Positions 1 to 53,297 of a DNA stretch of 64,000 bases are shown here, in pieces. The DNA is from a virus: positions 62,001-126,000 of the IMG/VR virus record IMGVR_UViG_3300043540_000091; one strand, 5' to 3'. The first letter of the stretch is position 1. Every line of letters starts with the position of its first letter. A program made the position numbers and the translations under genes. Under the pieces are notes generated by a model. It saw only the letters and a list, made by a program, of their open reading frames with translations. It was not told the DNA's origin and did not search any database.

Positions 1-1373
1 ATGACGTTCTTGCGGGGTTGGTAACCGGCAAGAGTCCGGAAGCAGAAGTGAGCTTCCGGAACGCTGAGATCCGAGATAGCCAGCTTCATGCGGCTGTACG
101 GAGCCAGTTCGTGGAATCCCCAGCAATCCTTCTGGATGAGGTATCCAGTCACGAAGGCCGGAGCCTTGTTGCCGAGGTCAGTGAACACAACCGAGGCAGC
201 GCCGTTCGCAGCCATGCGACCGATGTACTTGGCGTTGGTAGCCGAGATACCGCGATACACGTTGTAGTGAGTAGCACCGGCCACGCCAGCGATCGTCAAG
301 GAGACGTGCTGACCGGAGGTCACAGCCACGCCAGCCGAAGCGACTGCCACGCCTTCCGAGCGTTCGTTCTCAGCCGTCACCAGGTACACATAGGTACCGG
401 CGGGGATCAAGGCACCAGTGCCGGACGCTGCGCCAGTGGCGGAAGCGGGAGCGGCGGGAGCGCCGATGATCGGGCGGAGAGGAGCGGTCTTACCAGAGAG
501 GAAGCGGCTGTCTTCGATGCCGACAGTGCCGTTCGATACCCATTGGCGGCGGAGGTCCGCGCCGGAGGCATCTTGAGCCGAACCTGCCAACACGATGCGC
601 TGGATGCTGTTAGCACCAGAACCGAGGGCGAAGGCTTTGTTGTAACCCGACAAGATCGTCGGATCAACGAACAAGGTCTCAGCCTTACCCATGTTCATGC
701 GGCTACGGAGAGCGGCATCTTCGATGATGGGCTGGTCAAGGGCACCGTTCTTCGACAGAACAACCGACTGATTGCTGCCGTACGAAGCGAACATGAGGTC
801 CTGAGTCGACACCAAGATGTCCGACATACGGACTTGAGCGTCAACGCCGAGGATGTTCGGCAACTCGGGCATGGTCGCGGGGTTACCGTCGAACACACCG
901 TTGTTCGAGAAGTCGGCCTTACCTTTGAAGGAGTCGAACTCGATGTCCGCGCTCAACTTGATCGCGGCGTTATCGGCCTCACGATCTTCAGCCTTTTTGC
1001 CGTCGATGGTCTCAACCATGTTGGCGGCCACAGTCACGCGTTCAACGCAGCTGTAGAAGCACATGGGGACCGTCGCACGGATATAGTCGCCGACGTTCAG
1101 ATCGCCAACCGCGCCTTCGCGCTGAGCCGATCCGCCGAAGCGTCCATAAGACAGCTGACGGTTGAACTGAACCAGGAGGGACTTCGCCTTCTTGACGCCA
1201 AACAGCTTCTGCAGCTTGATGTGGCTGTCGTCGAAGGTGACGTTCTGCATCACCGGCTCGAGGTTCTCGATCTGCAATGCAGATCCTTGGACCAACTGCG
1301 AGGGAGCTACGTTGTAGTTGCCAGCCTCGAGTGTTTTCACCAGACTCTCAAGAGTCTTGACGAGATCGTTCAT
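1..1373 (-). CDS. Major capsid protein, HK97-fold type (C terminus cut by window edge)
   Basis: The open frame starts with ATG at 1373 and runs without a stop to base 1, giving 457 complete codons. The N terminus (MNDLVKTLE...) is a helical arm. It is followed by a capsid-like core with SYGRFGG, a segment MSDILVSTQDLMFASYGS, and a C-terminal part with GYLIQKDCWGFHELAPYSR. Residues about 320-400 (GTYVYLVTAENERSEG to VVFTDLG) look like an inserted Ig/FN3-type beta domain. The gene follows a scaffold-like gene by one base, in an operon with portal, protease and terminase, as expected for a capsid protein. The family is inferred from order and overall character; no similarity search was possible. 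A long frame on the opposite strand is its shadow. Probably only a few residues are missing. Confidence 0.82.
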   Translation of the reverse strand, partial: MNDLVKTLESLVKTLEAGNYNVAPSQLVQGSALQIENLEPVMQNVTFDDSHIKLQKLFGVKKAKSLLVQFNRQLSYGRFGGSAQREGAVGDLNVGDYIRATVPMCFYSCVERVTVAANMVETIDGKKAEDREADNAAIKLSADIEFDSFKGKADFSNNGVFDGNPATMPELPNILGVDAQVRMSDILVSTQDLMFASYGSNQSVVLSKNGALDQPIIEDAALRSRMNMGKAETLFVDPTILSGYNKAFALGSGANSIQRIVLAGSAQDASGADLRRQWVSNGTVGIEDSRFLSGKTAPLRPIIGAPAAPASATGAASGTGALIPAGTYVYLVTAENERSEGVAVASAGVAVTSGQHVSLTIAGVAGATHYNVYRGISATNAKYIGRMAANGAASVVFTDLGNKAPAFVTGYLIQKDCWGFHELAPYSRMKLAISDLSVPEAHFCFRTLAGYQPRKNV

Positions 1374-1374
1374 T

Positions 1375-2223
1375 TTACTTTCCCCCTTTGGAGTGTATTA
1401 GCTTCTCGATATCACCGTGTCCTTCACCAGTGATGAAGAACTTATTTACCAGTTCACGTTCGCTCTTTTCGAGCTTGGTCATCGGGATCTTGCGAAGAGC
1501 ATCCTTAGCCTGTTGCGCAGTCATCGCCTTAACTTCACCGCCATTGCTGGCCGGAGCGTCAAGCTCAGATTTCTGGATCACCTGGATGTCAGTGATCGAC
1601 TTGCGCGAGGGCTTCGTCAAGACCTCGAAGGCCTTCACGATCTGCTCGTTGGCTTGCACCAGCTCACCAACTTGCTTCTTCAACGCTTCAATCTCAACGT
1701 CCTTTTCGGACTTGCCCATCTCAGCCGGAGCTGCGGCGGGTTCTGCAGCGGGTTCTGCGGCAGGAGCCGGAGCTGCGTCAGCAGCGCCTTCATCCTGTGC
1801 ATACGATGCTTGCAGGGCCTGACGGAGGATCGAGTAATGACGCTCGAGTTCTTCCGGAGGCATGCTTGAATAGATCTGCGACAGTTCTTCATCAGAAAGA
1901 GGAGCATCTTCTGCGCCAGCTTCCTGTTCAAGAGCCTGATCGCCTTCTGCGGCAGGAGCAGCATCGGCAGCGGGAGCGGCAGGAGCAGCATCGGCAGCGG
2001 GAGCGGCATCAGCGGCAGGAGCAGCGTCAGCGGCAGGCGCGGCGTCAGCTGCAGGTGCAGCTTCAGCGGGAGGTGCGTCCTGAGCAGGTGCAGCGTCGGC
2101 ATCCTTATCCTTGCCTTCTTCGTCCTTCTTCAAGGGCGCAGATTTAGCAAGAACGTCCGCCTTGGCGAGAGCTTCGTCTACCGAGGCGAGTAGGTTGTCG
2201 ACGTCCTGATCAGTCCAGTTCAT
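1375..2223 (-). CDS. Putative scaffolding / prohead core protein
   Basis: A 282-residue acidic protein. An N-terminal helical segment is followed at about residues 40-100 by repeated AAPAAD units, then a charged helical region and a coiled-coil-like stretch (MGKSEKDVEIEALKKQVGEL) at about 170-200. The C terminus is basic and helical. It lies immediately upstream of the capsid gene (stop to ATG one base apart), and its low-complexity, extended-helical make-up suits an internal scaffold that a prohead protease would digest. Scaffolds diverge quickly, so the assignment rests on position and composition. A tail-assembly or decoration role is less likely. A perfect tandem duplication inside the Ala/Pro region suggests recent length change. 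Confidence 0.55.
   Translation of the reverse strand: MNWTDQDVDNLLASVDEALAKADVLAKSAPLKKDEEGKDKDADAAPAQDAPPAEAAPAADAAPAADAAPAADAAPAADAAPAAPAADAAPAAEGDQALEQEAGAEDAPLSDEELSQIYSSMPPEELERHYSILRQALQASYAQDEGAADAAPAPAAEPAAEPAAAPAEMGKSEKDVEIEALKKQVGELVQANEQIVKAFEVLTKPSRKSITDIQVIQKSELDAPASNGGEVKAMTAQQAKDALRKIPMTKLEKSERELVNKFFITGEGHGDIEKLIHSKGGK
1951..2004. repeat. Two perfect tandem copies of a 27-bp unit
   Basis: Bases 1951-1977 and 1978-2004 are identical 27-mers coding nine residues of the Ala/Pro/Asp-rich stretch of the scaffold-like gene. More diverged copies continue on both sides. The repeat keeps the reading frame, as expected for slippage-driven length variation. Confidence 0.8.
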
Positions 2224-2877: not shown

Positions 2878-3333
2878 TTAAAACGAGTACTTAGTGTACT
2901 TTAGGCATACGCCCTTGGATGCGACAGGCGCATTACCAAAGACTATATGAGAGGAGGCACCGTTCGACTTCTCGATCGAAGCTTCCACGGCCTTGAGACC
3001 GCGCTTCTTGGCCCATGACATGGCCGCATCCTTGACCTTGCGATCGACGGAACCGCCGAAGTCCATGCGGATCAGACCATTGTCATATACTGAGGTCATC
3101 ACTTCGTTCTTCTTAAGCTCGCGGACGGCGCGGAAGTGATTTATGGCCTTGTGGACTGTGTCCTTGACCTGCTGTTGCTGCGCGACTACCGGCGTATGGC
3201 GGCCAAACTGCTTCAACCACTTGTAAAAACGATATCGCAACTTCGGAGGAAGCATCTTTTCCAGCTTGGAGAACGCGATGTCATGCGTCAGCTCGGCGGA
3301 AAGGGTATCTACGTCTATCTTGCTCATACTCAT
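2878..3333 (-). CDS. Unknown basic protein
   Basis: 151 residues, lysine-rich, with helical segments at the N terminus (KLEKMLPPKLRYRFYKWLKQ) and a C-terminal mixed domain (DNGLIRMDFGGSVDRKVKDA, SHIVFGNAPVASKGVCLKY). It starts at 3333 and overlaps the stop of the giant upstream gene by four bases (ATGA-type coupling), so it is made together with that protein. It is the last gene before a probable promoter gap. No family recognised. Confidence 0.6.
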   Translation of the reverse strand: MSMSKIDVDTLSAELTHDIAFSKLEKMLPPKLRYRFYKWLKQFGRHTPVVAQQQQVKDTVHKAINHFRAVRELKKNEVMTSVYDNGLIRMDFGGSVDRKVKDAAMSWAKKRGLKAVEASIEKSNGASSHIVFGNAPVASKGVCLKYTKYSF

Positions 3334-6300: not shown

Positions 6301-9300
6301 TGTGACAGGGAGCTGATGAACTTGACCGTATCTTCGTTATGCTTGCGCGTCTTGCCCTCAGCTCGCTCTTGAGCAAGCTTTGCCTCGAAGGTCTTGGCCA
6401 TCTCGACGACGGTCTTTGGCTCTGTAGAGTTGCTGAACTGAGTGGAGATGCCAGCGATCTCGGAAGATGACAGTTTGCCAGGAGACTTCACTGCACGAGC
6501 GATGAACTCCATGCCCTTGTCTGAGAGATTACCTTCCTGAGCCATCGTGACAAGGGTATTGAAGTCCTTGGAATCCATAACCTGACGCTCGAACGCGCTC
6601 TTGGTCTTCTCTCCTACCAGGTCCTTGCGGCTGAGAGCGTTGATCGCTCTGTACATAGACTCATTCTTGACCTGATCTGACGGGTAACTTCTCGAGGACA
6701 GATGATCTAGGACGTCCTTCGAGATCCTGTCCATGTCCTTGTCGGTAAGCTCTTTCACGTTTGACGGACTCGTGAATGCATTTCTGATGATGTTCGACAG
6801 GTCGTCGGGAGACTTATCGATAGACAAGTCCATCAGCTTGCGCAAGCGACTAGAATACTCGCTGAACGCGTTGTCTGACATGGAAGTAGAACGACCGCCA
6901 GTGTGGGCTTCTGGGTTTAGCAGGTACTGGTTGAGACTTCGAGAGATGTCGCTCACGTCATCAGGACTAAGGTCCGGCTTCGACAACCATCCGTCGAGGG
7001 CGGTTCTCTTGACGGCGTTGTTGGGTATGGCCAACACGTCTGCCAAGCTTCCAGTCTGAGCTATCTCTGATACCTTCTCGGGAGAGATCAGGTCCTTCTG
7101 CAGCGCGAGCTTGCGCAGCTGCGCTCCGGACTCACCAGGCATGTCAGCCAAGAAGTCCATGTTGACGCCGCCGGTGTGTTTCAAGGTCTGGAAGGCATCG
7201 CTTCCTATGCCGTAGTAGTTCTTGGTATTGTTCAGTAACTTGGCCCAGTTCCCAGCTACCTGATTGTCATCGTCGTTGGGTATGGTCGCCATACGATTGG
7301 CGATCTCATTCATTATACCCTGCGCTCGTTCCTTGCTGGCTTGGCCATTGTGAAGACTTTGACTCTGGCTTCTTACTCTCTGGCCGAACATCTTTGACGC
7401 GAGATCGTTTCTTCCAGTGGCGAGGGCGTGATCTATCATACCCTCGCGAGTTAGGATACTCTTGGAGACCGAATTCATGATATCTTCATCTGACAAGTGT
7501 CCCTGCATCTCTGCCGGAGTTCCGATCAGTTGCTTGGCAAGATTCAGATGAGATACGTCCAAAGAGTTCAGACGATGAACGGCGGCGTTCTGAGCCCGTG
7601 ACTCTCCCTCGTGATTGAATCCACCAAGGACAGCGTTGCCGAAGAGATCCGGTCGATGTTCTGATACGTTCTTGATGTTCTCAGCAAGAACCTCGTCGCG
7701 ATGTTCTGCAGGCAGCATCTTGAGTGCGCGGTCCCATATCTCGGCAGGTGCCTTCGTGTGAATGATGGACTTCGCGGCTTCTTGAGAGCCCGAGTTCAGG
7801 ATCTCTGAGTACCGTGCCTTCTGGTCTGCTTCAGGAAGTTGGTCGTAACGCTTCAGCTCATCGCCCTCCCCGATGGCATCCATCAGGTCCTTGTTCTTGG
7901 CGATATCATGGAAGGTATCGAGAGACAGGTTCTTGGATCTGAAGATGGGCGCGATCACATGCGCAGGCTCAAGATCTTTCGGCCTTCCGTGTCTGTCATA
8001 GATCTTGGGAGGCTTTGCTGCGTATTCTTTGGCCTTAAGATATGCGCTATCTAGGAACGAAGGATCGGCTTTCTTGAGATCGATGTGACTGGACAGATTC
8101 TGCATCATGGCTGGGTTGGACAAGACAGCTTCTTGCGCATTCTTGTCGCCAGATTGGGCAAGCTCAGCTACCGCTCGAATCAACCGGCTGTCATCGTCAT
8201 TGTGTTGCTCATGAAGAACATTGTACGGAGAAGCGTAGAACTCCTTGTTCTTGCCGATCTTCTTCTTGAAGGCCGTTGAGATGTCCTTGGCATGCTTTTC
8301 ACGTATCTCTGGAGACACACGCGAGTCCATTGCCATACTGAGCTTGCTGTGAAGTACTGTTTCTGGACGTTCCTTAGTCTTCTTGGCGATGTCTTCGAGA
8401 TCAGCGCCAGCATACTTCTGGTGCGCGGCCTTGAAGATCTCGTCCTGCTGTTCCTTCGGCATCTTGTCGAAGTGACTCTTGAAGTCATCGTCGTGATATA
8501 CTTCAGAGATCGACGTCTTGCCAGAAGAGAGCCTTTCTCGGACCTGCTGATCGGCAACTAGAGGATGCAGGCGAGCCGCGTCCTGGACAGTACGAGCCTT
8601 GCGTTTAAGAGCTTCCTGCACGACCGACATGTCTGCCTTGTCATGATTAAGCGCTTGCACGGCCACGTCTTGGTTCTTATGATTTACAATCTCCTTGAGC
8701 ACGTCCGGCGGTACCTGCTTGGCGGACAAGATGTTTCTTGCCGCGTCGGTACTCTTGTCGGAACCGTTCCATGACGCGCGAACATCAGACTCATCGGCAA
8801 GCTCATGGTGAATGGCATCTTGAGAACCCTTCTGGATGAGTGCCTTTACCTGTTCCTTGGTTATCGACGGGTTCCTTAGAAGATTCGAGATCTTTGACTT
8901 GTTATCATAGTCGTTCGGCTTTTTTACACGACGAATGAACGCGTCGATTGATTCCTTAGGAAGGTTCGGATGCTGAAGAGCTTCGCGTCTAGCGTCCTTG
9001 TTGGTAGCATACTTAGCAAGCAGAGCCGGATCGACGTTGTTGTGCTCGAGGATATCTCCGATCGCGTCGTGGCGGGAGTAGTCATGTTCCTTGGGAGTGG
9101 ATTCAAGCAACTGGTGGATCTTGTTGAGGTGTGCGCGTGACAGGTCCTCTCGCGCCCGTACCAGCCTACCAAGATGCGATGCGTTATCCGGAGTCGGTGA
9201 GTACTCGTCGACTCCATGGTACTTATTGGCATGGATCGAGTCAATGGTCCTGTCGAGAGTCTCCGGCGTGTGGCGCTTCGAGTTTATGAGGCCCTCGAGT

Positions 9301-9842
9301 CCGTACTCCCCGATGCCTTCCTGAGCTTCGGGATTCTGAGATCCTTCCTTCCAGTGCTGCATGTAATAGTCTGGAGGCAGCTGTTCGTAGGTGTGCGGGA
9401 TAGCTCCGGCCTTGAACGCCTTGTCAGACATGGTACGAAGCTCATCTTCGTTCATGATTCCAGAGTTCGCAAGATCTTCATGAGAAGAAGAGTTCGGATG
9501 GTCGGGATGGAAGGTCCGTGATAGATAGTCCTTCTTGATGTGAAGCGGAGTGTTCGGATGCTTCATCAAGTTGTCTGCCCATTCATAGCTGTACGGCTCT
9601 GCCTCGCCCGACTCATCGAGCGTATGGCTGTCCATCATGTGGTTGTACAACTTCTCGATGCTGGCAGATGACAAGTTCGGATGCTGCGTAAGCTCATCCA
9701 TGAGAGGCTCGTTCTCGAACTTCTCAGCGTCGGGCAAGGAGATGTACTTCTCGACATGAGAATGCAGAGTGTCAGCTGGCGTATCAGGTGCCAGATGCGG
9801 AGTGTCGACTGTATCTTCTACTTCATCATCATGGTCCGACAT
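3330..9842 (-). CDS. Giant 2170-residue helical-repeat protein, probably virion-associated or injected
   Basis: The first half holds many degenerate helical repeats that begin with HPN or NPx: HPNLSSASIEKLYNHM, HPNTPLHIKKDYLS, HPNLPKESIDAFI, NPSITKEQVKALI, HPNISEARLAKVM. They resemble leucine-rich-repeat-variant or HEAT-like solenoids. Near residue 2000 a distinct domain contains GSWVVEEYQSDFAQKF, recalling the E-x-QSD motif of large phage polyvalent or injected proteins (recalled, not checked). Its end has TYPR-like aromatic segments. No signal peptide or membrane span was seen. It lies between head genes and is co-translated with both neighbours, so an internal virion protein is the best guess. 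A tape measure is less likely because of the globular C terminus. Confidence 0.6.
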   Translation of the reverse strand: MSDHDDEVEDTVDTPHLAPDTPADTLHSHVEKYISLPDAEKFENEPLMDELTQHPNLSSASIEKLYNHMMDSHTLDESGEAEPYSYEWADNLMKHPNTPLHIKKDYLSRTFHPDHPNSSSHEDLANSGIMNEDELRTMSDKAFKAGAIPHTYEQLPPDYYMQHWKEGSQNPEAQEGIGEYGLEGLINSKRHTPETLDRTIDSIHANKYHGVDEYSPTPDNASHLGRLVRAREDLSRAHLNKIHQLLESTPKEHDYSRHDAIGDILEHNNVDPALLAKYATNKDARREALQHPNLPKESIDAFIRRVKKPNDYDNKSKISNLLRNPSITKEQVKALIQKGSQDAIHHELADESDVRASWNGSDKSTDAARNILSAKQVPPDVLKEIVNHKNQDVAVQALNHDKADMSVVQEALKRKARTVQDAARLHPLVADQQVRERLSSGKTSISEVYHDDDFKSHFDKMPKEQQDEIFKAAHQKYAGADLEDIAKKTKERPETVLHSKLSMAMDSRVSPEIREKHAKDISTAFKKKIGKNKEFYASPYNVLHEQHNDDDSRLIRAVAELAQSGDKNAQEAVLSNPAMMQNLSSHIDLKKADPSFLDSAYLKAKEYAAKPPKIYDRHGRPKDLEPAHVIAPIFRSKNLSLDTFHDIAKNKDLMDAIGEGDELKRYDQLPEADQKARYSEILNSGSQEAAKSIIHTKAPAEIWDRALKMLPAEHRDEVLAENIKNVSEHRPDLFGNAVLGGFNHEGESRAQNAAVHRLNSLDVSHLNLAKQLIGTPAEMQGHLSDEDIMNSVSKSILTREGMIDHALATGRNDLASKMFGQRVRSQSQSLHNGQASKERAQGIMNEIANRMATIPNDDDNQVAGNWAKLLNNTKNYYGIGSDAFQTLKHTGGVNMDFLADMPGESGAQLRKLALQKDLISPEKVSEIAQTGSLADVLAIPNNAVKRTALDGWLSKPDLSPDDVSDISRSLNQYLLNPEAHTGGRSTSMSDNAFSEYSSRLRKLMDLSIDKSPDDLSNIIRNAFTSPSNVKELTDKDMDRISKDVLDHLSSRSYPSDQVKNESMYRAINALSRKDLVGEKTKSAFERQVMDSKDFNTLVTMAQEGNLSDKGMEFIARAVKSPGKLSSSEIAGISTQFSNSTEPKTVVEMAKTFEAKLAQERAEGKTRKHNEDTVKFISSLSHTFNASTTSSEEDKVKNDFVVNYTKKAALNPAVALHANSLLYKMAVAQSHTDEERSIDLLASLPNDRAAYNQFNPLNMSSIVNNPRFMEMAQSGVKLEMLAKNASKLTGNNASILVSRAMTTPLPEGNAQLMITLNKNKYVQMEDSVKLGRSLTDAEFRDVAESVYNALEGNLVDVAHSRLNSVQDLLKDPNLAAPGAPHLGMEHREAILNKLKIFSNVVANSTFTSDLSGVGGKLEKIDQMVDVIHESVQKIAASLRDETAKLGYGDSVRYNHQAIKGIAENIASANIKLGRNQAMKTFDMLKEFHSLDEAAGKKLTAPEETFGILTNIVSKAEQLEDQDWKSMFQSRPDAMFALSKRSSIPKEALASVDLRGIEDSKTGEGSMHQAFMVESSQWMNKMSSDDRAAYGKQLMDMYVRMHVDGKVQGDAYQNSMKTAIKSMARHMTRGDVQDIMVGTKDHSIAQSLFKEAVTNGAGGEETLKMYVRDHKKIMGTDLFAISKDSGSYEGSNIANRLEPVIRSPHINEEVSGRVCAMFVTNPEAMEAAMNKMLENPSVPQSSVDRIADQVSTNAQANHARFSESIGMGLSSQLLKHPNISEARLAKVMSQSEKEYGAYITHEAPFNPAFVNPTHGGKLFRAQPVVTPKDVPNVDGSLAVKTLNVKSGDYEKMREVMGFIPAEGMSWVEFKRKYPQQEKNLPKSVKDVFMAANNKPVMPERFVEAARQLDDNASKYHITFSDWKSPLQRHRGEDQKPNLVVQVNNSEEKERELSKDPKLWALYQHLLMDANGVDAAENSIGLHPTTPHLVSWSRVDTDQDKGSWVVEEYQSDFAQKFRSNLNALIESMPEGSHINGQHITADEMKQYSKTIARHLDDWADASMQAVIENAKAHGIKNLYMHGAELRGYLSNSDYNREFWDNKNTKAKMSGFRKIYEEGPRKYGFEECDYTDYPRYSSSLLGELNASKLSTKCWVLKLNAPDQRPKRKKKPNLR

Positions 9843-10450
9843 TACTCATCTCCGTACTTCAGCCAGTACATCATCTTGCGAGTCCATTCCTTATCCTCGG
9901 CCTGATGAAGACGGGCATTCTCGATATCTTGGTCATACTTCTTGCTCGCCAGCTTCTGGTTACGCTCTCGCTCGGCCTGCTGCTTGTTGATCATGTCAAG
10001 AACACCTGAACTTAGACTGACGTTAACTGGTTTGGCCGGTGCTTGCTCTGCAAGAGGCGGCGTTGACACGATCGGGAGAGCTTCCTGGATGTCAGTCTTC
10101 CGTGCGACCTTGATGTCACCGCGCTTGATCGCTGCGAACAGCGCGTCCTTGGTCTCTTGATCGATCAGATCGCCGTTCAGCATGCAGGTATGGCCATCAG
10201 AGGTGATCTCAACCACGTCGCCATTGTCCATGACGTAGCGCAACAGGTTGACAGTTGCCTTCTTCGGCTGCTCGATGGTCAGGTGAGATGACTTCTGGAC
10301 GACCTGGATCATGCGCTGATAGCTATTCTGGAATAAGTCTGGGAGTTTGCCGTTGGTGTTATCGACGACGAAGTCCAGAACGCGACCATCCGTGCGGATC
10401 TCGGCCAACGGAACGTCAGAATAATCAGATTTTATGACAAAGATCTTCAT
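9842..10450 (-). CDS. Unknown protein between protease-kinase and giant protein
   Basis: 202 residues. The N terminus is a beta-rich domain (MKIFVIKSDYSDVPLAEIRTDG, VVEITSDGHTCMLNGDLID), the middle a Pro/Val linker (STPPLAEQAPAKPVNVSL) and the C terminus a charged helix rich in Lys, Glu and Arg. The stop overlaps the giant gene's ATG (TAATG) and its own start overlaps the protease-kinase stop, indicating translational coupling. No motif recognised; perhaps an assembly partner of the giant protein. Confidence 0.58.
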   Translation of the reverse strand: MKIFVIKSDYSDVPLAEIRTDGRVLDFVVDNTNGKLPDLFQNSYQRMIQVVQKSSHLTIEQPKKATVNLLRYVMDNGDVVEITSDGHTCMLNGDLIDQETKDALFAAIKRGDIKVARKTDIQEALPIVSTPPLAEQAPAKPVNVSLSSGVLDMINKQQAERERNQKLASKKYDQDIENARLHQAEDKEWTRKMMYWLKYGDE

Positions 10451-12183
10451 ACTGCAGCCTTCTTCTTCTGTTCAGCATGCTCCGCATCGCGAGCTGCTCC
10501 AAAGGTTGGGCGGACTGCATTGTTCACGATGCTGCGCATGTGATCGATCGGCATGTCAGGCCTATCGGCGACCTTCTGGTACATCATGAGTCGGCCAACC
10601 GCGTGCTTTATGGTAATTGGATGATGCCCTTGATCCATCATCCTGCCAGCGAGTTTCTTCGGATCAATCCCCTTGATCCACTTGACTGCTTCCGGATGTA
10701 CCGGCTGACTGTCGCGCAGGTACCACGGCTTCATAGCTGGATCATAGTCGAACGAAGCGTCGTTGTCAATGTTTACCAGGTGTCCTTTAGGATGAATCAA
10801 CGTGTTACCGGAGTTCCGATCAGTGTCAGCGCCGAGGATACTGTCCATGATGGCCATTTTATGAACCGAACCGTCCTTGTTGGCGTTCTTCAAGACCGAG
10901 GCGATCTTCTCATCGGTCATGGTGTACGGAGTCTTAGCTCCGTCTATGATCTCCATGGCTTGATGATGCCGCTGAGATGCCTTATCGCCGTCTATTTCCT
11001 TAACTCCAGCAACAGGATGCTTGAAGTAGTTCGTGACAGGGACGTGCTTGCCCATGCCGAAGACGTCGTTGGCCAGCTCATAGTAGTGGGTTGAGTTTTC
11101 TGCGGCCTTGCTATGGTCAGGATGTTTTACCAGTACGTTCTGTCCGGCGTCGTTGCGATGCTTGGTGATGAGATTCGCGTAGTTCTCATGCCCTGGCGTA
11201 AAATCGGTGCCGCCGTGCTTACGCTTGGGATCAAAGTACAGCCCTTCCATCAGCTTCTTCTGTGCTTCTGACTGATTCTTGTTCGGACTGTGCGAAGCTC
11301 CGACGCGGATAAGCTTGATGGACGGCTTCGACTTCTTGAGCGCAAGCTCCTCGGCAAGATCCGTGAAGTGGTGGATGTAATCATCCGACACTTCCGGAAG
11401 AGCTGCCTTAAGAACTTCCTTCAACGGGCGCTTACGGTCCCAGTCGCGAACGATCGCCTTGACTCGGTTACGCTGGAATCCGGTGATATGTTCCTTGGTG
11501 AGCGCTGCGCCGCCGGTCAGCTGACCTGGCGCGACATTGCCCATACCGGCAGTGAGTGCCTTGTTCAGATCCTCGAGGGCCTTGTGCAGGTCCAGGACCG
11601 GATCATGAGGCATGAACGATTCATCCAGTACCGGCGATTCGAATTTCATAAGGTCTGCTATGTCCGAAGATATCTTCCGTATCGACTTTGCGACACTCTT
11701 CGTCTTAGGGTCATCATAAAGACCGGCAATGGCCATCTTGTTGCAGCTGCGGAGAGTGATGGCAACGCGACGGCCAACCGATTCCTTAAGAATATAGTCT
11801 TCACGTTCTAGAGTAGCTCCTTCTATGCTGAAGCCGACCAAAAGCCGCTCATCCTTTGCCGCGTAATAGCGGATCATAGCGGCGACGGCTACCGCACCTG
11901 GATGCTCTTGATCCTCAAACAACTCGCCTATGATATACACGAATGGTTTTTTCGAAAAGTCCCAGTAAGCTCTTTGTCGATCGTTCTCGCAATCTTTCTT
12001 TTCCATTATCTTCTTGGCATAGATAACAGCGCCGACGATATCTTCAGCTTTATTTGAATGCTCGAAGTTCAGAACGCCTTTACCATCTATAAGATCCGAG
12101 ATGTCGTGGTTCTCTACTATTAATAACTCACCGCTTGAGTCGATATGCTCGGATGTTGCTATGCCGTCTATCTTAAGATTCAC
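10447..12183 (-). CDS. Prohead protease fused to a PI3/4-kinase-like domain
   Basis: 578 residues from GTG 12183, chosen because GGGAG sits eight bases upstream and GTGA overlaps the preceding stop; a GTG at 12198 would add five residues. Residues 1-160 look like a T4 gp21/herpes-type prohead protease, with a His in VLNFEHS (about 42) and a Ser in VGFSIEG (about 119). Residues about 300-578 carry kinase-like elements: a Lys in NVLVKHP (about 353), acidic residues in a helix (YYELA), the catalytic loop ADTDRNSGN (about 453-460) and metal-binding VNIDNDASF (about 471-478). Such loops are typical of PI3/4-kinase and related protein-kinase-like folds. The protease half would mature the head; the kinase substrate is unknown. 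Confidence 0.72.
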   Translation of the reverse strand: MNLKIDGIATSEHIDSSGELLIVENHDISDLIDGKGVLNFEHSNKAEDIVGAVIYAKKIMEKKDCENDRQRAYWDFSKKPFVYIIGELFEDQEHPGAVAVAAMIRYYAAKDERLLVGFSIEGATLEREDYILKESVGRRVAITLRSCNKMAIAGLYDDPKTKSVAKSIRKISSDIADLMKFESPVLDESFMPHDPVLDLHKALEDLNKALTAGMGNVAPGQLTGGAALTKEHITGFQRNRVKAIVRDWDRKRPLKEVLKAALPEVSDDYIHHFTDLAEELALKKSKPSIKLIRVGASHSPNKNQSEAQKKLMEGLYFDPKRKHGGTDFTPGHENYANLITKHRNDAGQNVLVKHPDHSKAAENSTHYYELANDVFGMGKHVPVTNYFKHPVAGVKEIDGDKASQRHHQAMEIIDGAKTPYTMTDEKIASVLKNANKDGSVHKMAIMDSILGADTDRNSGNTLIHPKGHLVNIDNDASFDYDPAMKPWYLRDSQPVHPEAVKWIKGIDPKKLAGRMMDQGHHPITIKHAVGRLMMYQKVADRPDMPIDHMRSIVNNAVRPTFGAARDAEHAEQKKKAAV

Positions 12184-12968
12184 GACGCGTACTCCCACTT
12201 ATATCCCTTATATGAAGAGTACTTACCCGCAAGGCACCGATACACTGAACTCTTTATGAAACCAGCGGCTTCAGCGGCCTTGGCGGTGCTGAAGAAGAGC
12301 GCGGGGCCGCCTTCCAGACTGACAGCCTTAAGTTTGGACCCACGGGAGAACTTCGGAGATAAACGTGTTGATCTAGACTTAAGATGTAATAATTTAAGTC
12401 CTGTAGGAGTTCTCGTTAAGGAAGGCTGAGGATATTCTGTTTCCGGCGCAAACTTCCACCGACTACCTGCATGAGACCATTCCTTACCATTGCAGCACTT
12501 GGAGATCGATACCCGACAATATCCATCGGCCTGAGCCATCCCCATGTTTGGGTAACAGACTTCGATACCTGTCACGAGGTCCAGCCTGACTACTCGACGC
12601 GCGTTTGGTTGTCGGCATCTGAAGCCTGTGTTGGACTGCTTTATCTTGAGTTTAATGTCTTCAGACAAAGTCTTGTACTTTGATCCGCCTGATTCAAGGT
12701 TGTATCCATTCGGCACTATAGACTTATGCTGAGCGATATGGAACCTCTCTAGGTCATCAAGAGCTTCTGGAAATGGAGCTGACGCCAGAATTGCCACCTC
12801 AAAGTTATCCTTGCCATACTTCTGGATGGCCTTATGAAGCAAGAACTTCCTAGTCTGACTCGCGTAGCAGTGTTCGGCCCATCGGCGTTCAATACCTTGA
12901 GAAGTTTGGCCGACGTACTTCTTGCCGTTGACCTTGTTTGTTATTAGATAAACGATGCCGCAGTTCAT
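12180..12968 (-). CDS. GIY-YIG homing endonuclease with NUMOD-type C-terminal repeat
   Basis: 262 residues. The N terminus has the GIY-YIG core: GIVYLITNKVNGKKYVGQT, a conserved Arg in GIERRWAEH, and a Glu-containing helix (DDLERFHIAQHKS). The centre and C terminus look like nuclease-associated DNA-binding modules (FFSTAKAAEAAGFIKSSVYR, YKGYKWEYAS). Free-standing enzymes of this type cut intron-less or endonuclease-less alleles and spread by repair. It sits between MuF and the prohead protease, its stop overlaps the next start (GTGA), and it carries the ribosome site for that gene, a neat insertion. It is somewhat richer in A+T than its neighbours, consistent with recent arrival. Confidence 0.88.
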   Translation of the reverse strand: MNCGIVYLITNKVNGKKYVGQTSQGIERRWAEHCYASQTRKFLLHKAIQKYGKDNFEVAILASAPFPEALDDLERFHIAQHKSIVPNGYNLESGGSKYKTLSEDIKLKIKQSNTGFRCRQPNARRVVRLDLVTGIEVCYPNMGMAQADGYCRVSISKCCNGKEWSHAGSRWKFAPETEYPQPSLTRTPTGLKLLHLKSRSTRLSPKFSRGSKLKAVSLEGGPALFFSTAKAAEAAGFIKSSVYRCLAGKYSSYKGYKWEYAS

Positions 12969-12978
12969 ATCTCACAGA

Positions 12979-13887
12979 TTAGGGTTCGTGTTTGCAACCA
13001 AGGGTACAAGTGTTACCGCTACTCTTTGAGAGTACATGCTCCTTCTCGTGCTCGATGTTGATCTCTAAGTATTCGTCATAACTGATGAAATTTGGCATCG
13101 GCGTGTCGGCGGAGGTCGGCTCTTCAGACTTGCGAACGCTCCAGTAGTCCTCATAGTAGTCATAGCCGATCGCCTTGAAGACGATCGTGCCGGACTTATC
13201 GTACCCGAAGTTCGGAGGAACGAAGGCCATGATGTGTCGGCAGTGAGGATGAAGAGGCGACTGGTGCGGCGTCTTGCCGTCCCATTCCTTAGGTTTGAAG
13301 TACCCTTCTCGGACCTGCGACAACCGATATGGTTTGGGGACCTGCAGATTGGACCGGTCATGGTACATGGACTTGCAGTACTTGCAGATCTTATGGTCGG
13401 CGATGCCGAGAAACACGACGGTCGGATCTTTCACCTTGATGTCAGACGCCAACCTCGTGATACCCTCGCGAGAGGCGTAGGCTTGAACGATGTGAGCCTC
13501 GTTCGCCACTAACATGTCAACGTATTCTCCGGCCTTGTCGAAGTGATTTCTGATATACCGGATCGCTTCCGATGGAGTCTTTGCCTTGGCTACGTCGGCC
13601 AAGATATGATTCTTCACCTTCAGCTGCTGGGAGTCGAGGTAGTCGGACGTGATCTCGGCGAGATTCTTGATGTTCGAGACGTTTGGCTTTGCGTCGGGAC
13701 CGTATAGCATCTTCAAGGTGTACATGTAGATGCCTTCGATCGTGTGAAGAGGATCGGTCCGCTTCACGACCTCGAAGTAGATCTTCGGCCCTTTGAAGAG
13801 CTTGCCGAGAAGACCTGCCTTGGTACTCTCGAAGAGAGACTCGATGCGGCTGATGATTAAGCGGCGCTGGGCGTCGGTGAGCTTCAC
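12979..13887 (-). CDS. MuF-like minor head protein
   Basis: 302 residues from GTG 13887 (GGGAG five bases upstream). The middle to C-terminal part has the MuF signature: VVFLGIADHKICKYCKSMYH followed by SPLHPHCRHIMAFVP, with the paired cysteines and the HP-C-RH motif that bind metal in this family. These proteins sit near the portal and help head morphogenesis or enter the cell with DNA. It directly follows the portal gene, the usual order. The C-terminal 50 residues end in a Cys/His cluster (GNTCTLGCKHEP) of unknown role. Confidence 0.82.
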   Translation of the reverse strand: MKLTDAQRRLIISRIESLFESTKAGLLGKLFKGPKIYFEVVKRTDPLHTIEGIYMYTLKMLYGPDAKPNVSNIKNLAEITSDYLDSQQLKVKNHILADVAKAKTPSEAIRYIRNHFDKAGEYVDMLVANEAHIVQAYASREGITRLASDIKVKDPTVVFLGIADHKICKYCKSMYHDRSNLQVPKPYRLSQVREGYFKPKEWDGKTPHQSPLHPHCRHIMAFVPPNFGYDKSGTIVFKAIGYDYYEDYWSVRKSEEPTSADTPMPNFISYDEYLEINIEHEKEHVLSKSSGNTCTLGCKHEP

Positions 13888-16065
13888 CTACTCTCCCTTC
13901 TTGTCGTCCTTGATCACCTTGGACATGTCGGCGACGGCCTTCTTCGCTTCCTTGCGCCAGCGCTCCATGTGAGCGTCGACAAGGTCGTTGTGTCTGCGAA
14001 GCAACTTTCTCGAGATCGAGTTGTGATTGTTCTTGATGGCCTTCTCCAAGACGACATAGTTTGCGGCAGCCCACTGAATGTTCTTGGTTGAGATCTCCTT
14101 GATCTGATCAAGAGGCTTCTCTGCCTTGGACGTCTGTTCCGGCGGTGGATTGGAGTCTCCCGAATCTTGGTTAGAATCACCGGAGTCACCCGAATCTGGG
14201 TTACCCTCGTCTTCTCCTCCCTCTTCGGGACCTCCCGCTGAGGTTTGCATGGCCTGCTGCTGTACCATCATCTCCTGCTGCATGGCGATCTGAGCCTTCT
14301 GAAGCACGATCTGTTGTTGCTGGAACCAGAACGGATCACGGATGTACTGATAGCGAGGATCTTGTGCTGCGCCCTTCTGCTTGAAGAGATTCTCTAGGAT
14401 CACGCCGACCGGCACGTACTTATCAAGGACGGCCTGCATCTGCGGGTTCAGAGGGAAGTCGCCGCCAAGCTCGGCGGGGACCGGATTCTTCTCCACCTGC
14501 TTCATGACCTCGTTGTAGGTCATATGGACGGCCATGTCCTGCTGGAGTCGAGTGTTCTCCTTCTCGGGAGAGTCCTTCTCGAGACCTGTCATAACGATCT
14601 GGTGAGTCTTTGCAAGCTCGGAGTCGACGAACGGGAGGATGTGACTGTTGAGGAAATCCTGGATGTCCTGCAGCAACGGGCGCAAACCCACGTCGCGAGC
14701 AGCTGTGAGCTTCCATTCGTTGTCAGACTCGGAGAGGGCCTGAGTGTTCGTGCCGCGAGCAAGGTGCGCGTAGCCAGGAAGCTCTTCAGGAGACATCTGG
14801 AATGACGACAGGATCACACGAGCGTTGTTGTCCATGAGGTACTGGAACTCGGCGTCGCGGCCAGAATTATCGATCGGCTGCCATGAGAGTTCATCGTCAG
14901 TTCCGACGCCGAACACCGGCATGCGCCATGCGTTCTGGACAGAGTTGATGGACTGGTGGAACTGCAAGCGGATGCGCTGTACTGCCGCCTCATCGACGGA
15001 GTCAGACTTGAAGATTAACATTCCCTTTGCTGCGCGACCGTGCTGGAAGTACAGCTTGTTGTGCACCGTGATGTTGATATGAGTCGTGATGGCGTTCAAG
15101 GCCTGATCGATTGGAGTTAGCGGATAGCCAGAGAACTCGACGTTGGTAGTCGGGTACAGATTGTAGACCACCATCTCATCTTCTGTGAAGGCCTGAGATG
15201 GTTTACCTTCGATCACCTGAACGTAGCGGTATTCATCTTTCTTGTACTTCTCGATGTCGATCTTCTTGTTCTTCAGCTCAGACAATAGGCGGATGGCTTC
15301 AGTCCGAAGCGACTGGTCTTGCTCCTTCTTGGGCATGACCTTGTACATGGTACCAGCGTCGGATGCACGCCACGCGTACAGCTCGCTCTTACCGGTCTTG
15401 ATGTTGCGTTTCCAAACTCGTTCACATGCGAAGCGTCCGTACGCTAAGCCATCGCGAGTGATCAGCTTCAGGAACTGACTGAGGTTCACCTGGTTCAACT
15501 CATCGTCGAGAGCGCCATGGCCACAGCGCCACAGTATCTTCTTGGCACCGTCGATACGCTCTTGGATTTGCTTTGCTTCTTCCTCTGAGCGCTTGCGGTT
15601 CTTGTCCATTTCCTGGAACTCGAAACCCATGGAGAATCGATCGGTGCGAGGACGACCGAACGAGCCGATCATGTTAGAGCGTGCTTGTAAGATCTGGTTG
15701 ACAAGCTCGTCGCCGCCAGGACCTGTGATGCGTTTCAAGATATGGTCAGGAGTAAGGTTGGATTTTAGTCGATAGAAGCCCATCCCCGTCGCATAGTTTG
15801 CGCGTGGATCGACCTCGAACGCCATCCGGTCTACGCCGTCAGGCTGAGAAGCTATACGTTCGTTCTGTTGCCGGATGGACTTTAGGATGAGGCCAAGTAC
15901 AGAGTTACCTTCCGCCTTCTCGAACGGTTCGCCCTTGTCGGCTGCGGCATTCTGCGCCTCCCGATCTGCCTCTTCCTTCTTCAAGAGGTTATACGAGTTC
16001 ATGTCCAGCGCAACTATCTGCTGGACATGCTTAGCCGGTTTTGGACCGCTCTTATCTTTGGCCAC
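13888..16065 (-). CDS. Portal protein
   Basis: 725 residues from GTG 16065 behind GGTGGAG. It shows the general build of SPP1/HK97-like portals: an alpha/beta clip and wing region (GFEFQEMDKNRKRSEEEAKQ, FLKLITRDGLAYGRFACERV, EDEMVVYNLYPTTN), a long central region with HINITVHNKLYFQHGRAAKG, then MSPEELPGYAHLARGTNTQ, typical of portal C-terminal domains. After residue about 600 come Gln/Met-rich and Gly/Asp/Ser-rich linkers and a helical tail. It lies between a terminase-side gene and MuF. The portal ring is the DNA entry channel and the terminase docking site. Confidence 0.87.
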   Translation of the reverse strand: MAKDKSGPKPAKHVQQIVALDMNSYNLLKKEEADREAQNAAADKGEPFEKAEGNSVLGLILKSIRQQNERIASQPDGVDRMAFEVDPRANYATGMGFYRLKSNLTPDHILKRITGPGGDELVNQILQARSNMIGSFGRPRTDRFSMGFEFQEMDKNRKRSEEEAKQIQERIDGAKKILWRCGHGALDDELNQVNLSQFLKLITRDGLAYGRFACERVWKRNIKTGKSELYAWRASDAGTMYKVMPKKEQDQSLRTEAIRLLSELKNKKIDIEKYKKDEYRYVQVIEGKPSQAFTEDEMVVYNLYPTTNVEFSGYPLTPIDQALNAITTHINITVHNKLYFQHGRAAKGMLIFKSDSVDEAAVQRIRLQFHQSINSVQNAWRMPVFGVGTDDELSWQPIDNSGRDAEFQYLMDNNARVILSSFQMSPEELPGYAHLARGTNTQALSESDNEWKLTAARDVGLRPLLQDIQDFLNSHILPFVDSELAKTHQIVMTGLEKDSPEKENTRLQQDMAVHMTYNEVMKQVEKNPVPAELGGDFPLNPQMQAVLDKYVPVGVILENLFKQKGAAQDPRYQYIRDPFWFQQQQIVLQKAQIAMQQEMMVQQQAMQTSAGGPEEGGEDEGNPDSGDSGDSNQDSGDSNPPPEQTSKAEKPLDQIKEISTKNIQWAAANYVVLEKAIKNNHNSISRKLLRRHNDLVDAHMERWRKEAKKAVADMSKVIKDDKKGE

Positions 16066-17077: not shown

Positions 17078-18961
17078 TTAGGTATCTTCATCGTCAGCTC
17101 CGAAGTCCCAGATCACGTTTCCGTCCGCAGACTTGCCCTGCGGGGCACCCTTGTCCGCCGTGGCTAAATTTCGCACCTTCTGAGTCATCCAGTCCTCGAA
17201 TCTGTTGTCCTTGCCGAACTCCGACATCTTAGGCATGGTATCCTGACTCGGGGATACCGCGCTACCCTTCGGACGGAACAGGTTCTGGGCCTGATAACGT
17301 ACGGTGTCCGCGATATCTGCGTATTCCCCGTCATCTGGATCTTTGGTTATGTTTCCTAGGGTATCCAGCTTGAAGCAATGCTCGGCGAACATCTTGATGA
17401 ACAGCTCGGTGCGCTCATGTTTGATCACCTTCAGCGACCTCTGGCCGCCAGCATTGATGATCTGACCGCGAACGGCCTCGATGCCGCCGCGAACGTCCTT
17501 GACGAAGTCTTGGCATGGCATTCGGCGCTTCTTGAACTCCTTGATGAACATGGGCTCAGATGTATCCGCGAACCACTTTACGACTCGGTACATGTCGCGG
17601 ACGGATATCGCGAGGTCGATCATCTGCTGGAACTCAAGTCCTGGAACCGAGTATGCGTCGATCAACCACCACTCGTTCTGGATCTTCGCGCTGACGGATA
17701 TGGCGAAGGCGTGCGTCGTACCCCAGTCGACACCGGCGTAGAACTTGATATCGCGCTGCAACATGAGAGTGACGAGATCGTTCAGCGTAGCGTAACCTGG
17801 CATCTTCTCGCCGGTATAATGCTCCCACGCCTGGGCCAGAGAGTAGGTGTTGGCGGTACCGTCGTCCTTGTCAAGGAAACGTGGATACACCATCCCTTGC
17901 GAAGATGGTTTCCAGCACATCAGCTGTGCTTCTGCCAGATCAGGATCGTCGTTCGAGAAGAACTGAGAGATCGTGAAGTCGATCGGCTTCCAGAGTCCGC
18001 CCTTGTCGTTCTCCGACCGGTGAGCGAGCCGTCCGCGACAGACCGGTAGCAAGGGACACTTCGCGCATCCTCCCATGGCCTCGATCTCGTCATATGCGTC
18101 CTTCTCTCGATCGGCCAAGGATTCAAACTGGTCCTTGGTTATCGTCTTGAGCGGGAGGTTCTTGGCGACGTACACGGTCTCCTTAGGAAGATCAGGTCGA
18201 TGACGCTCAGGCTGGCACTTCTCCGTGATGTCTATGATGTTCCATCGGAAGATCCTATATCCATACTTACGCGCCTTGTCCATCTCTTTCGAGAACAGGC
18301 CGCCTGGGAACTTCATCGTAGAAGTCTTGATGGTTACTGGATGCTGACCGTTGAACACTCCAGGGATGAATCGAGCTTCCTTGTACGCGCGTTGCTGTTC
18401 CTTGGAGCGAATCGTGTCGATCTCGTCGATCGTGAAGATATTCGTATGAGCGCTGTTCGCTCCAGTGATGGTACACACGATGATCTTCATGTACGCGGTT
18501 CGTTCCGTTGGCAAACCTTCGTCAAACTTCAGCGAGATTTCCTTGGCGTTCTGGGCGTCGAGAGTGATCTTGTGGTAATCGAGGTACGGCTTGATCTTCT
18601 GGATGAAGCTCTCGATGTATGTCTGCGCAGCCGTAGCCTGTGGCACGATCGCGGCCATGTGAGCGATGGAAGCTCCGAACTGCGCCATCATGATGATTGC
18701 GAAGACAGCTTCCGACAAAGTCTTGTAAGATTCACGAGAAGAGATGACTATCGTATCGGGCGATAGATTGGCCTGGTTCGCCTCGTACATTTTGTATGTC
18801 TCGTAGATCCAATGTATCGGACTGGAGTTACTGTCCGGATCTACCCACGAGTCTGGGAACTCGAGGTCGAGGAAGTTATGAATCCACTGCTTCACATGCT
18901 CAGGCGTAGTGAATCGAACAAGGAACGTCTTTGCTAAGTTCTCGTCGATCTTAACGGCCAT
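17078..18961 (-). CDS. terL: Terminase large subunit (packaging ATPase/nuclease)
   Basis: 627 residues. The ATPase has a Walker A-like loop (VISSRESYKT, about 72-81) and Walker B NIFTIDEID (about 174-182). The nuclease half begins at YAGVDWGTT (Asp about 412), with a further acidic site in WFADTSEP (about 463-470). Between them, CAKCPLLPVC (about 299-308) is a cysteine cluster that might bind zinc or an iron-sulfur cluster, unusual for the family. The enzyme translocates DNA into proheads through the portal and cuts concatemers. Small terminase lies upstream in the same operon with one small gene between; the ATG at 18961 overlaps that gene by 11 bases. Confidence 0.9.
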   Translation of the reverse strand: MAVKIDENLAKTFLVRFTTPEHVKQWIHNFLDLEFPDSWVDPDSNSSPIHWIYETYKMYEANQANLSPDTIVISSRESYKTLSEAVFAIIMMAQFGASIAHMAAIVPQATAAQTYIESFIQKIKPYLDYHKITLDAQNAKEISLKFDEGLPTERTAYMKIIVCTITGANSAHTNIFTIDEIDTIRSKEQQRAYKEARFIPGVFNGQHPVTIKTSTMKFPGGLFSKEMDKARKYGYRIFRWNIIDITEKCQPERHRPDLPKETVYVAKNLPLKTITKDQFESLADREKDAYDEIEAMGGCAKCPLLPVCRGRLAHRSENDKGGLWKPIDFTISQFFSNDDPDLAEAQLMCWKPSSQGMVYPRFLDKDDGTANTYSLAQAWEHYTGEKMPGYATLNDLVTLMLQRDIKFYAGVDWGTTHAFAISVSAKIQNEWWLIDAYSVPGLEFQQMIDLAISVRDMYRVVKWFADTSEPMFIKEFKKRRMPCQDFVKDVRGGIEAVRGQIINAGGQRSLKVIKHERTELFIKMFAEHCFKLDTLGNITKDPDDGEYADIADTVRYQAQNLFRPKGSAVSPSQDTMPKMSEFGKDNRFEDWMTQKVRNLATADKGAPQGKSADGNVIWDFGADDEDT

Positions 18962-28548: not shown

Positions 28549-29539
28549 CGTCAGCTTCGGCATCCCTGGCTACATGCAAGAATACTGGGAACGCCACGAC
28601 CATGACGACTTCACTCATATCGGCTTGTCCAGCGGCATGCGGTACAACTTCGCCAAGACCAACCCGTACCTCGAGTCCTCTATCCTGCAGCTTCACGACG
28701 ATGTCGGAAACGCTGAGGTTGAAGGATACAGAGTCGTCATCGGTAACGGAGCTTCTCAGATCGTGTCTGCGGTAGCGTACGCAGCCCAGAAGATCAACCT
28801 GAATGAGATCCTTCTCGAAGCGCCGTACTGGGGTAGACTCCAGTTCCTGCTGAACTCCGGAGTACACTCGGCTGGCTTCATGGGACCGGCAGTCAAATCT
28901 CATAAAGCGCTAATCACCTCTCCGTGGTTCAAGTTCGCGGTCAGCCCGAACAATCCGGATGGTCGACTTCAAGAGCCGGAAGGTTCACTGCCGCACTTCC
29001 TGAGCGTGGTCGACATGTGCTACTACTGGCCTCAGTACGTTGACAAGGTGGAGAAGAAGGCTCACGACGTGATGATCTTCGGACTATCGAAGGCTACCGG
29101 CCATGCCGGTACTCGGCTTGGATGGGCTCTCGTAAAGGATCAGAACTTCGCGAGCTTGATGCGTGAATATATCGAAGAATCTACCTGCGGAGTGTCGAAC
29201 GACGCGCAGGAACGCGCCAGGACAATACTGTGGCACTCCCATCGCACGAATCATGCTCCGTTTCAGTTTGCAAAGACTGAACTCGCCGAGCGTTGGGAAG
29301 CGTTCGCTCAGGCTGCCAAGCAGTCGGGTAAGGTCAATGTACTCAACGCGAACGGAATGTTCGCCTGGTGCGAGTATACCGGCGGCGGGGAGTCGGCTGC
29401 AGACGAGATGCTGAAGGTGTACGGACTTAAGGTCATGCCTGGAACCTACTTCGGATCGTCACCTTCCAAGTTCAGGGTAAATCTTGGCTGTGACAAGGAA
29501 ATCTTTAACAAGATGCTTGGAGCACTCCGTGGAAGCTAG
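28541..29539 (+). CDS. PLP-dependent aminotransferase, alliinase-like family
   Basis: 332 residues from ATG 28541 (AGGTG five bases upstream; a GTG three codons earlier is possible). Fold-type I elements are in order: a cofactor-site VVIGNGASQIVSAVAY, SPNNPDGRLQEPEG, DMCYYWPQY, FGLSKATGHAGTRLGWALV (PLP lysine about 184), and SKFRVNLGC with the carboxylate-binding Arg (about 312). SKATGHAG plus SPNNPDG match the alliinase and tryptophan-aminotransferase-related group. The reaction would be transamination or C-S lyase chemistry. It lies among recombination genes and starts in an overlap. A metabolic enzyme of this type is rare in phages; the substrate is unknown. Confidence 0.75.
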   Translation: MIDVSFGIPGYMQEYWERHDHDDFTHIGLSSGMRYNFAKTNPYLESSILQLHDDVGNAEVEGYRVVIGNGASQIVSAVAYAAQKINLNEILLEAPYWGRLQFLLNSGVHSAGFMGPAVKSHKALITSPWFKFAVSPNNPDGRLQEPEGSLPHFLSVVDMCYYWPQYVDKVEKKAHDVMIFGLSKATGHAGTRLGWALVKDQNFASLMREYIEESTCGVSNDAQERARTILWHSHRTNHAPFQFAKTELAERWEAFAQAAKQSGKVNVLNANGMFAWCEYTGGGESAADEMLKVYGLKVMPGTYFGSSPSKFRVNLGCDKEIFNKMLGALRGS

Positions 29540-53215: not shown

Positions 53216-53221
53216 GTATAT

Positions 53222-53250
53222 ATTGTCCACCATAAACAGAATGAAGTCAA
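53222..53250 (-). promoter_or_regulatory. Leftward promoter of the subtilase
   Basis: Read leftward: TTGACT (53250-53245), 17-base spacer, GACAAT (53227-53222), then six bases to ATG 53215. The -35 box shares the palindrome GTCAACTTGAC (53246-53256) with the rightward promoter. Confidence 0.5.
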
Positions 53251-53251
53251 C

Positions 53252-53280: not shown

Positions 53281-53297
53281 CTCAGCTGGAGGTATCT

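What the first reader, a model, noticed from the sequence alone, without database searches (positions are those of the whole stretch)
10447..12183. Prohead protease fused to a PI3/4-kinase-like domain
The N-terminal half has His and Ser of prohead proteases (FEHS, GFSIEG). The C-terminal half has a kinase-like catalytic loop TDRNSGN and metal site IDNDASF with a possible lysine. A kinase on a head-maturation protease would be packed in the prohead and could phosphorylate capsid proteins or be injected. I know of no described example, though this is from memory.
Basis: partly seen in the sequence, partly recalled or inferred. Interest (0 to 1): 0.78.

Follow-up and report, generated by a model that had tools for sequence, protein, structure and literature searches.

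The report
Capsid protease carrying a cleavable kinase
In a large environmental phage, the enzyme that trims the virus shell is made as one protein with a lipid-kinase-like enzyme, joined by a copy of the shell protein's own N-terminal peptide (a probable cutting site), which suggests that the phage loads a kinase into its head and delivers it to the host.

Summary
One minus-strand ORF (10447-12183, GTG start; longer reading to 12198) encodes a head-maturation protease joined to a PI3/4-kinase-like domain. The kinase scores above the Pfam cut-off (PF00454, 4e-8), folds as one (pLDDT 86; Foldseek: PI4K-II, PI3K) and keeps Lys358, Asp460, Asn465 and Asp478. The fusion is no artefact: Myxococcus phage Mx1, an isolate, has it unannotated in its 'putative prohead protease', and 14 further relatives have it. 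In other relatives the same protease ends instead in GGDEF or holds a GNAT. New here: a disordered linker between protease and kinase carries a near-copy of the N-terminal peptide of the same phage's major capsid protein (LNKALTAGMGNVAPGQLTGGAAL versus LVKTLEAGNYNVAPSQLVQGSAL). A profile of capsid peptides searched against 9,717 ORFs finds only capsid proteins and these proteases. Listeria phage P100 has the same pairing without a kinase, and in a related solved capsid the deposited chain begins right after this Lys. Best explanation: the protease cuts itself at the capsid-type site, frees a kinase too large to leave the prohead, and the kinase is ejected into the host. Packaging, cleavage and injection are inferred, not shown. 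New variant of known head-protein/effector fusions.

The parts
10447..12183 (-). Protease-kinase gene, GTG start at 12183 (578 aa); the mechanical ORF begins at GTG 12198 (583 aa)
   Evidence: 16 family members with the same fusion
11704..12177 (-). Head-maturation protease domain (aa 8-165); His47 at 12058-12060, Ser124 at 11827-11829, His99 also invariant
   Evidence: PHROG 1028; 31% identity to the Listeria phage P100 head maturation protease, hhalign prob 97; invariant H47, H99, S124
11491..11568 (-). Capsid-protein-like peptide in a disordered linker (aa 211-236); predicted self-cleavage after Lys213, between 11560 and 11559
   Evidence: Profile of capsid N-terminal peptides hits only capsid proteins and these proteases; linker pLDDT about 40; Lys213 conserved; PDB 9row chain starts after the equivalent Lys
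11329..11481 (-). Conserved helical segment after the peptide (aa 240-290), present in relatives with and without kinase
   Evidence: Alignments A2, A5; helices in the model; similar C-terminal segments in kinase-less relatives
10564..11265 (-). PI3/4-kinase-like domain (aa 312-545): Lys358 at 11125-11127, Asp460 at 10819-10821, Asn465 at 10804-10806, Asp478 at 10765-10767
   Evidence: PF00454, family HMM, model and Foldseek, PDB profile search
1..1373 (-). Major capsid protein gene, cut by the window edge; its N-terminal peptide at 1266-1343 resembles the protease peptide
   Evidence: homologous to the annotated Mx1 major capsid protein
1375..2223 (-). Scaffold-like acidic protein (282 aa) between protease and capsid genes
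   Evidence: Position and composition only; counterpart at the same place in Mx1
12180..12968 (-). GIY-YIG homing endonuclease inserted just upstream; its stop overlaps the protease start
   Evidence: PF01541 1.2e-11; PHROG 314 1.4e-31
12979..13887 (-). MuF/SPP1-gp7-like minor head protein
   Evidence: PHROG 4728 and 115, TIGR01641 (weak)
13888..16065 (-). Portal protein
   Evidence: PF04860 1.2e-11; PHROG 15361
17078..18961 (-). Terminase large subunit
   Evidence: PHROG 5653 8.6e-14

Best explanation
The gene makes a prohead protease whose C-terminal propeptide carries an enzyme as cargo. Steps: (1) the protease co-assembles inside the prohead, so each copy brings one kinase [inferred from established prohead biology]; (2) on maturation the protease cuts the capsid protein at its N-terminal K|(A/T/S)-x-x-(A/T)-G site and cuts itself at its own copy of that peptide, after Lys213 [site shown in sequence; cutting inferred]; (3) this frees a helical segment plus PI3/4-kinase-like domain of about 40 kDa, too large to leave the shell as small peptides do [inferred]; (4) the kinase is ejected with the DNA and phosphorylates a host molecule, protein more likely than lipid, early in infection [inferred]. 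The C-terminal cargo is exchangeable: kinase, GGDEF cyclase-like, others. Fusion and kinase fold: about 0.97 likely. Capsid-type self-cleavage site: about 0.75. Delivery as a host-directed effector: about 0.6.
For: Kinase. Protease: and gene order terminase-portal-MuF-protease-scaffold-capsid as in Mx1. Fusion in an isolated phage and metagenomic relatives. Cargo exchange: GGDEF above cut-off in six relatives, GNAT-like in one, separate downstream kinase gene in another. Capsid-like peptide confined to capsid protein and protease, seen independently by PHROGs (major head protein, 3 of 22 members), closer to the own-phage capsid peptide than to others, and also in P100, which lacks the kinase. 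Deposited chain 9row_B starts at S25 right after K24 of 5lii_P, inside the homologous peptide. Precedents: SPN3US gp245 removes its own 64-residue C-terminal propeptide at the motif it cuts in capsid proteins (PMC10052503); T4 packages gpAlt (about 40 copies) and gp21 trims it (PMC9958956). Kinase domains like this one lie in portal, head-morphogenesis and ADP-ribosyltransferase proteins of other phages.
Against: No virion proteomics, cleavage assay or kinase assay. 9row may start at S25 because of what was modelled, and its paper was not found. The peptide could be a docking element rather than a cut site. The kinase is not universal and one member (L018) lost the catalytic Asp. In one lineage (L040-L050) extra domains lie before the peptide, so such cargo would stay with the protease. 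No substrate is suggested by sequence.
Confidence: 0.6

Rival explanations
1. The kinase acts inside the prohead: it phosphorylates capsid, scaffold or packaged proteins to control maturation or DNA packaging, and is not a host effector.
For: It is fused to an assembly enzyme and would sit at the right place. The capsid-like peptide ties it to the shell.
Against: Close architectural relatives replace the kinase by GGDEF or lack it, and Listeria P100 has a bare protease, so kinase activity is not needed for assembly across the family. Similar kinases are fused to portal and head-morphogenesis proteins elsewhere.
Confidence: 0.17
2. The capsid-like peptide is a docking element, not a cut site: it mimics the capsid N-arm so that the uncut protease-kinase binds scaffold or shell.
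For: The peptide is conserved well beyond the presumed scissile Lys, through P224 and L233.
Against: A deposited capsid chain starts right after the Lys; the segment is predicted disordered; SPN3US protease cuts itself at the capsid motif.
Confidence: 0.2
3. The C-terminal domain is a degenerate or accidental passenger with no activity.
For: One relative (L018) has His for the catalytic Asp; several relatives lack the domain.
Against: Catalytic Asn and Asp478 invariant and Asp460 kept in 13 of 14 aligned members at 22-57% identity; a second PI3/4K gene in the same phage and in Mx1.
Confidence: 0.06

Closest known systems
Myxococcus phage Mx1 'putative prohead protease' WNM70322.1 (OR576727.2)
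   Same: Protease 41% identical, kinase domain 28% identical, same gene order, same capsid-like peptide
   Different: 1239 aa with an extra middle domain absent here; deposited only as prohead protease, kinase not annotated
Herelleviridae head maturation protease, Listeria phage P100 gp15
   Same: Homologous protease, same capsid-peptide copy and a short C-terminal tail after it
   Different: 264 aa, no kinase or other cargo
Polyvalent proteins and MuF/portal effector fusions (Iyer et al. 2017, PMC5512222)
   Same: Head-gene context, swappable enzymatic domains, peptidase-effector combinations
   Different: [quoted passage not shown] here the carrier is the N-terminal prohead protease and the kinase is PI3/4K-like
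Phage T4 gpAlt with gp21 protease
   Same: Enzyme loaded in the prohead and trimmed by the prohead protease (PMC9958956); injection of Alt as described in PMC5512222
   Different: Alt is a separate ADP-ribosyltransferase, not part of the protease
SPN3US prohead protease gp245
   Same: Self-removal of a C-terminal propeptide at the motif used in the capsid protein (PMC10052503)
   Different: 64-residue propeptide, motif A-x-E, no enzyme cargo

Membership tests
Phage head-maturation (prohead) protease | Profile similarity to known members | tested here: met
   PHROG 1028 in 14 of 22 family members, best 4.4e-9; P100 protease hhalign prob 97
Phage head-maturation (prohead) protease | Conserved catalytic His and Ser | tested here: met
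   H47, H99 and S124 invariant in 22 sequences; which residue completes the site is not settled
Phage head-maturation (prohead) protease | Location between portal/MuF and capsid genes | tested here: met
Phage head-maturation (prohead) protease | Protease fold | tested here: inconclusive
   Domain modelled with high pLDDT but the Foldseek list was filled by kinase hits; profile search of PDB sequences found no protease
Phage head-maturation (prohead) protease | Cleaves capsid protein and itself | not testable with these tools
   Only the shared peptide is shown
PI3/4-kinase-like superfamily | PF00454 above the curated cut-off | tested here: met
   33.9 versus 27.1 bits
PI3/4-kinase-like superfamily | Kinase fold | tested here: met
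   Foldseek prob 1.00 to PI4KII, E 7e-6, TM about 0.5
PI3/4-kinase-like superfamily | ATP-site Lys, catalytic DRxxxN, metal-binding IDx | tested here: met
   K358, D460, N465, D478; His of DRH is Asn here
PI3/4-kinase-like superfamily | Phosphorylates phosphoinositides | not testable with these tools
   No assay; a protein substrate is at least as likely in a bacterial host (inference)
Polyvalent proteins (Iyer et al. 2017) | Several enzymatic domains in one head-region protein | tested here: met
   Protease plus kinase here; protease plus GGDEF, GNAT-like or ParB-like domains in relatives; packaging itself untested
Polyvalent proteins (Iyer et al. 2017) | Their kinase class (Ser/Thr/Tyr type lacking the C-terminal subdomain) | tested here: not met
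   Domain is PI3/4K-like with a helical C-terminal part
Polyvalent proteins (Iyer et al. 2017) | Injection into the host | not testable with these tools
   No proteomics available

The most novel reading that the evidence does not exclude
The C-terminal propeptide of the prohead protease is a general cargo dock in this phage group: a copy of the capsid protein's own cleavage peptide lets the maturation protease load, cut loose and trap exchangeable enzymes (kinase, GGDEF, others) in fixed ratio to itself, a self-releasing protein delivery system distinct from MuF, portal and T4-type targeting peptides.
Probability: 0.5. Interest if true: 0.87.

Novelty: new variant of a known kind. Interest (0 to 1): 0.74.

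Why it matters
Fusions of phage head proteins to effectors are known for MuF and portal, but a maturation protease as carrier, with a copy of its own capsid cleavage peptide between carrier and cargo, was not found described. If true it explains how a large enzyme is loaded and released without a separate targeting system, gives a sequence rule (a capsid-peptide copy inside the protease, followed by extra domains) for finding further delivered enzymes, and is testable in a phage that can be grown (Mx1).

Tried and rejected
Single-sequence scans for relatives found none in IMG/VR; two- and six-sequence alignments were needed. A fusion or assembly artefact was rejected: independent contigs and one isolate share it. 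Chance motif matches were rejected by profile and fold evidence. The weak second hit of the protein in its own genome looked like noise but proved to be the capsid-protein peptide. Foldseek on the full-length model gave only kinase-like hits, so the protease fold was not placed. Defence-system models did not match this protein. The A511 capsid-processing paper and the 9row paper were not held or found. The idea that the cut follows Glu (as in T4 and SPN3US) was set aside: that position is E, T, S or A in the proteases, whereas Lys is near-invariant. That count rests on peptides aligned by eye in the script, and the own-versus-other identity there does not correct for phylogeny. The tree is a quick one on 179 columns: it needs 5 changes for the kinase label and starred branches force only 2.

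Full report
WHAT IS THERE. The finding lies on the minus strand. The ORF runs from GTG 12198 (583 aa) or, more likely, GTG 12183 (578 aa), which has a GGGAG about 8 nt upstream and overlaps the preceding stop, to the stop at 10447. The window is 62001-126000 of a 138,678-base IMG/VR record. The order in the window, reading the minus strand, is terminase, a 324-aa protein, portal, MuF-like protein, GIY-YIG homing endonuclease, protease-kinase, a 202-aa protein, a 2170-aa protein, a scaffold-like protein and the major capsid protein. Myxococcus phage Mx1 has the same order of head genes.

PROTEASE. The N-terminal domain alone matches PHROG 1028 (head maturation protease) weakly (9e-4). Across the family 14 of 22 members match it, best 4.4e-9, and a profile of the family aligns with the Listeria phage P100 protease at probability 97 and 31% identity. 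His47, His99 and Ser124 are invariant.

KINASE. Residues 444-528 match PF00454 above its cut-off. A family HMM covers residues 312-545. The model of the domain has pLDDT 85.9 and pTM 0.86. Its nearest solved structures are type II PI 4-kinases and PI 3-kinases including VPS34, with RIO kinases further down. A profile search of PDB sequences returned 64, the 60 shown all PI3K, PI4K, mTOR or Tel1. Lys358, Asn465 and Asp478 are invariant in 14 aligned members and Asp460 is kept in 13.

THE FUSION IS REAL AND SHARED. The Mx1 protein annotated 'putative prohead protease' is 1239 aa: its N-terminal part is 41% identical and its C-terminal part, 28% identical, is the same kinase. Scans with alignments brought 38 viral loci and two from genome assemblies. 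After removing duplicates, 16 proteins including the window's and Mx1's carry the kinase in one frame; in L032 it is the next gene, and in L034 it is cut by the contig end.

THE CARGO CHANGES. Six relatives end in a GGDEF domain instead (L012, L024, L031, L037, L038, L039). L042 holds a GNAT-like domain just below cut-off. One kinase-bearing member matches ParB-like families (PHROGs; L018 weakly in Pfam). Many long relatives also have a middle domain of about 300 aa that this protein lacks. On a quick tree of the protease the labels need 8 changes where 5 is the minimum; starred branches force at least 2 for the kinase. So exchange is likely but its number is not well fixed.

THE CAPSID PEPTIDE. 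The linker between protease and kinase contains LNKALTAGMGNVAPGQLTGGAAL. The N-terminus of this phage's capsid protein reads LVKTLEAGNYNVAPSQLVQGSAL. In Mx1 the pair is AKAMEAGNFNAAPSTLQGGSAL and RKAMEAGNFNAKPSTLVQGSAM. An HMM built only from capsid peptides, searched against 9,717 ORFs of all loci, hit capsid proteins and these proteases and nothing else at E below 0.5. PHROGs independently reports 'major head protein' for three protease members. In 24 genomes the protease peptide is more like its own capsid peptide (61%) than others (55%), with none of 20,000 random pairings as high, though shared ancestry is not removed. Listeria phage P100 shows the same pairing, MKSWTTGHGTTPDTQVNAGALRRESL in the protease and LKSFTTGYGITPDTQTDAGALRREFL in the capsid protein, with no kinase. 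So the peptide is probably older than the cargo.

WHY IT IS PROBABLY A CUT SITE. The deposited capsid chain 9row_B is identical to 5lii_P over the compared stretch but begins at Ser25, directly after Lys24, inside the homologous peptide. The equivalent Lys is present in 27 of 27 capsid and 26 of 27 protease peptides compared. The peptide is modelled as disordered. In SPN3US the prohead protease removes its own 64-residue C-terminal propeptide at the motif it cuts in capsid proteins (PMC10052503). HK97 capsid protein is also cut after a Lys (own knowledge, not checked here). None of this is direct evidence for this phage.

MECHANISM. Shown: domains, fusion, peptide pairing, cargo exchange. Inferred: prohead loading, self-cleavage after Lys213, trapping of the roughly 40-kDa fragment, ejection, and phosphorylation of a host molecule. 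T4 gives the precedent: gpAlt is in the core at about 40 copies, gp21 trims it and small peptides leave the shell (PMC9958956). In the viral structure library, kinase domains like this one occur in proteins annotated as portal, head morphogenesis and ADP-ribosyltransferase, which favours delivered cargo over a role limited to the protease. The same phage has a second PI3/4K gene downstream of its capsid gene, as does Mx1.

KNOWN OR NEW. Polyvalent proteins and MuF or portal effector fusions are described (PMC5512222); [quoted passage not shown] Literature searches for a prohead-protease/kinase fusion found none, within a library limited to open licences. A 584-aa 'PI3K/PI4K catalytic domain-containing protein' of an uncultured phage is the best viral structure match; its N-terminal half was not examined and may be the same architecture. 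I file this as a new variant of a known kind.

Noticed in passing
L005:7787-9625 minus (G000 51787-53625, left of the window): A second PI3/4-kinase-like gene (612 aa, PF00454 2.5e-7, motif NNLDRHQGN...IDHER) in the same phage, downstream of the capsid gene; Mx1 has a comparable second kinase (28851-30710).
   Followed up: partly
window 3330-9842 minus: A 2170-aa protein between protease and capsid genes with repeated 'HPN' units and a C-terminal EYQSDF-type stretch, no Pfam or PHROG match; looks like a large head-packaged or polyvalent protein.
   Followed up: no
L003:24404-28843 and L003:17173-17904 (Mx1): Mx1 'NUDIX hydrolase' of 1479 aa also carries ART-PolyVal and GNAT domains: a polyvalent protein near the capsid gene. 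Two genes after Mx1's protease is a stand-alone 'nucleotide cyclase' with a GGDEF motif.
   Followed up: partly
Long relatives, e.g. P0002 (Mx1 protease) aa 431-759: A conserved middle domain with VPGLAPKTGRYM...VPDTHFTRYLFGL resembles by eye an HhH-GPD DNA glycosylase; no Pfam match.
   Followed up: no
L010:3400-5169; L032:8995-13260; L038:8995-13881: Inteins in head genes: an apparent one in the MuF-like gene of L010 (by eye) and intein-splicing matches in the proteases of L032 and, weakly, L038.
   Followed up: no
window 12180-12968 minus: GIY-YIG homing endonuclease with a NUMOD-like tail inserted between the MuF-like and protease genes; Mx1 has four small reverse ORFs at the same spot.
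   Followed up: partly
L018:9001-10977: Kinase with His in place of the catalytic Asp (NSHRNHGN), seen on two contigs: a probable pseudokinase.
   Followed up: no
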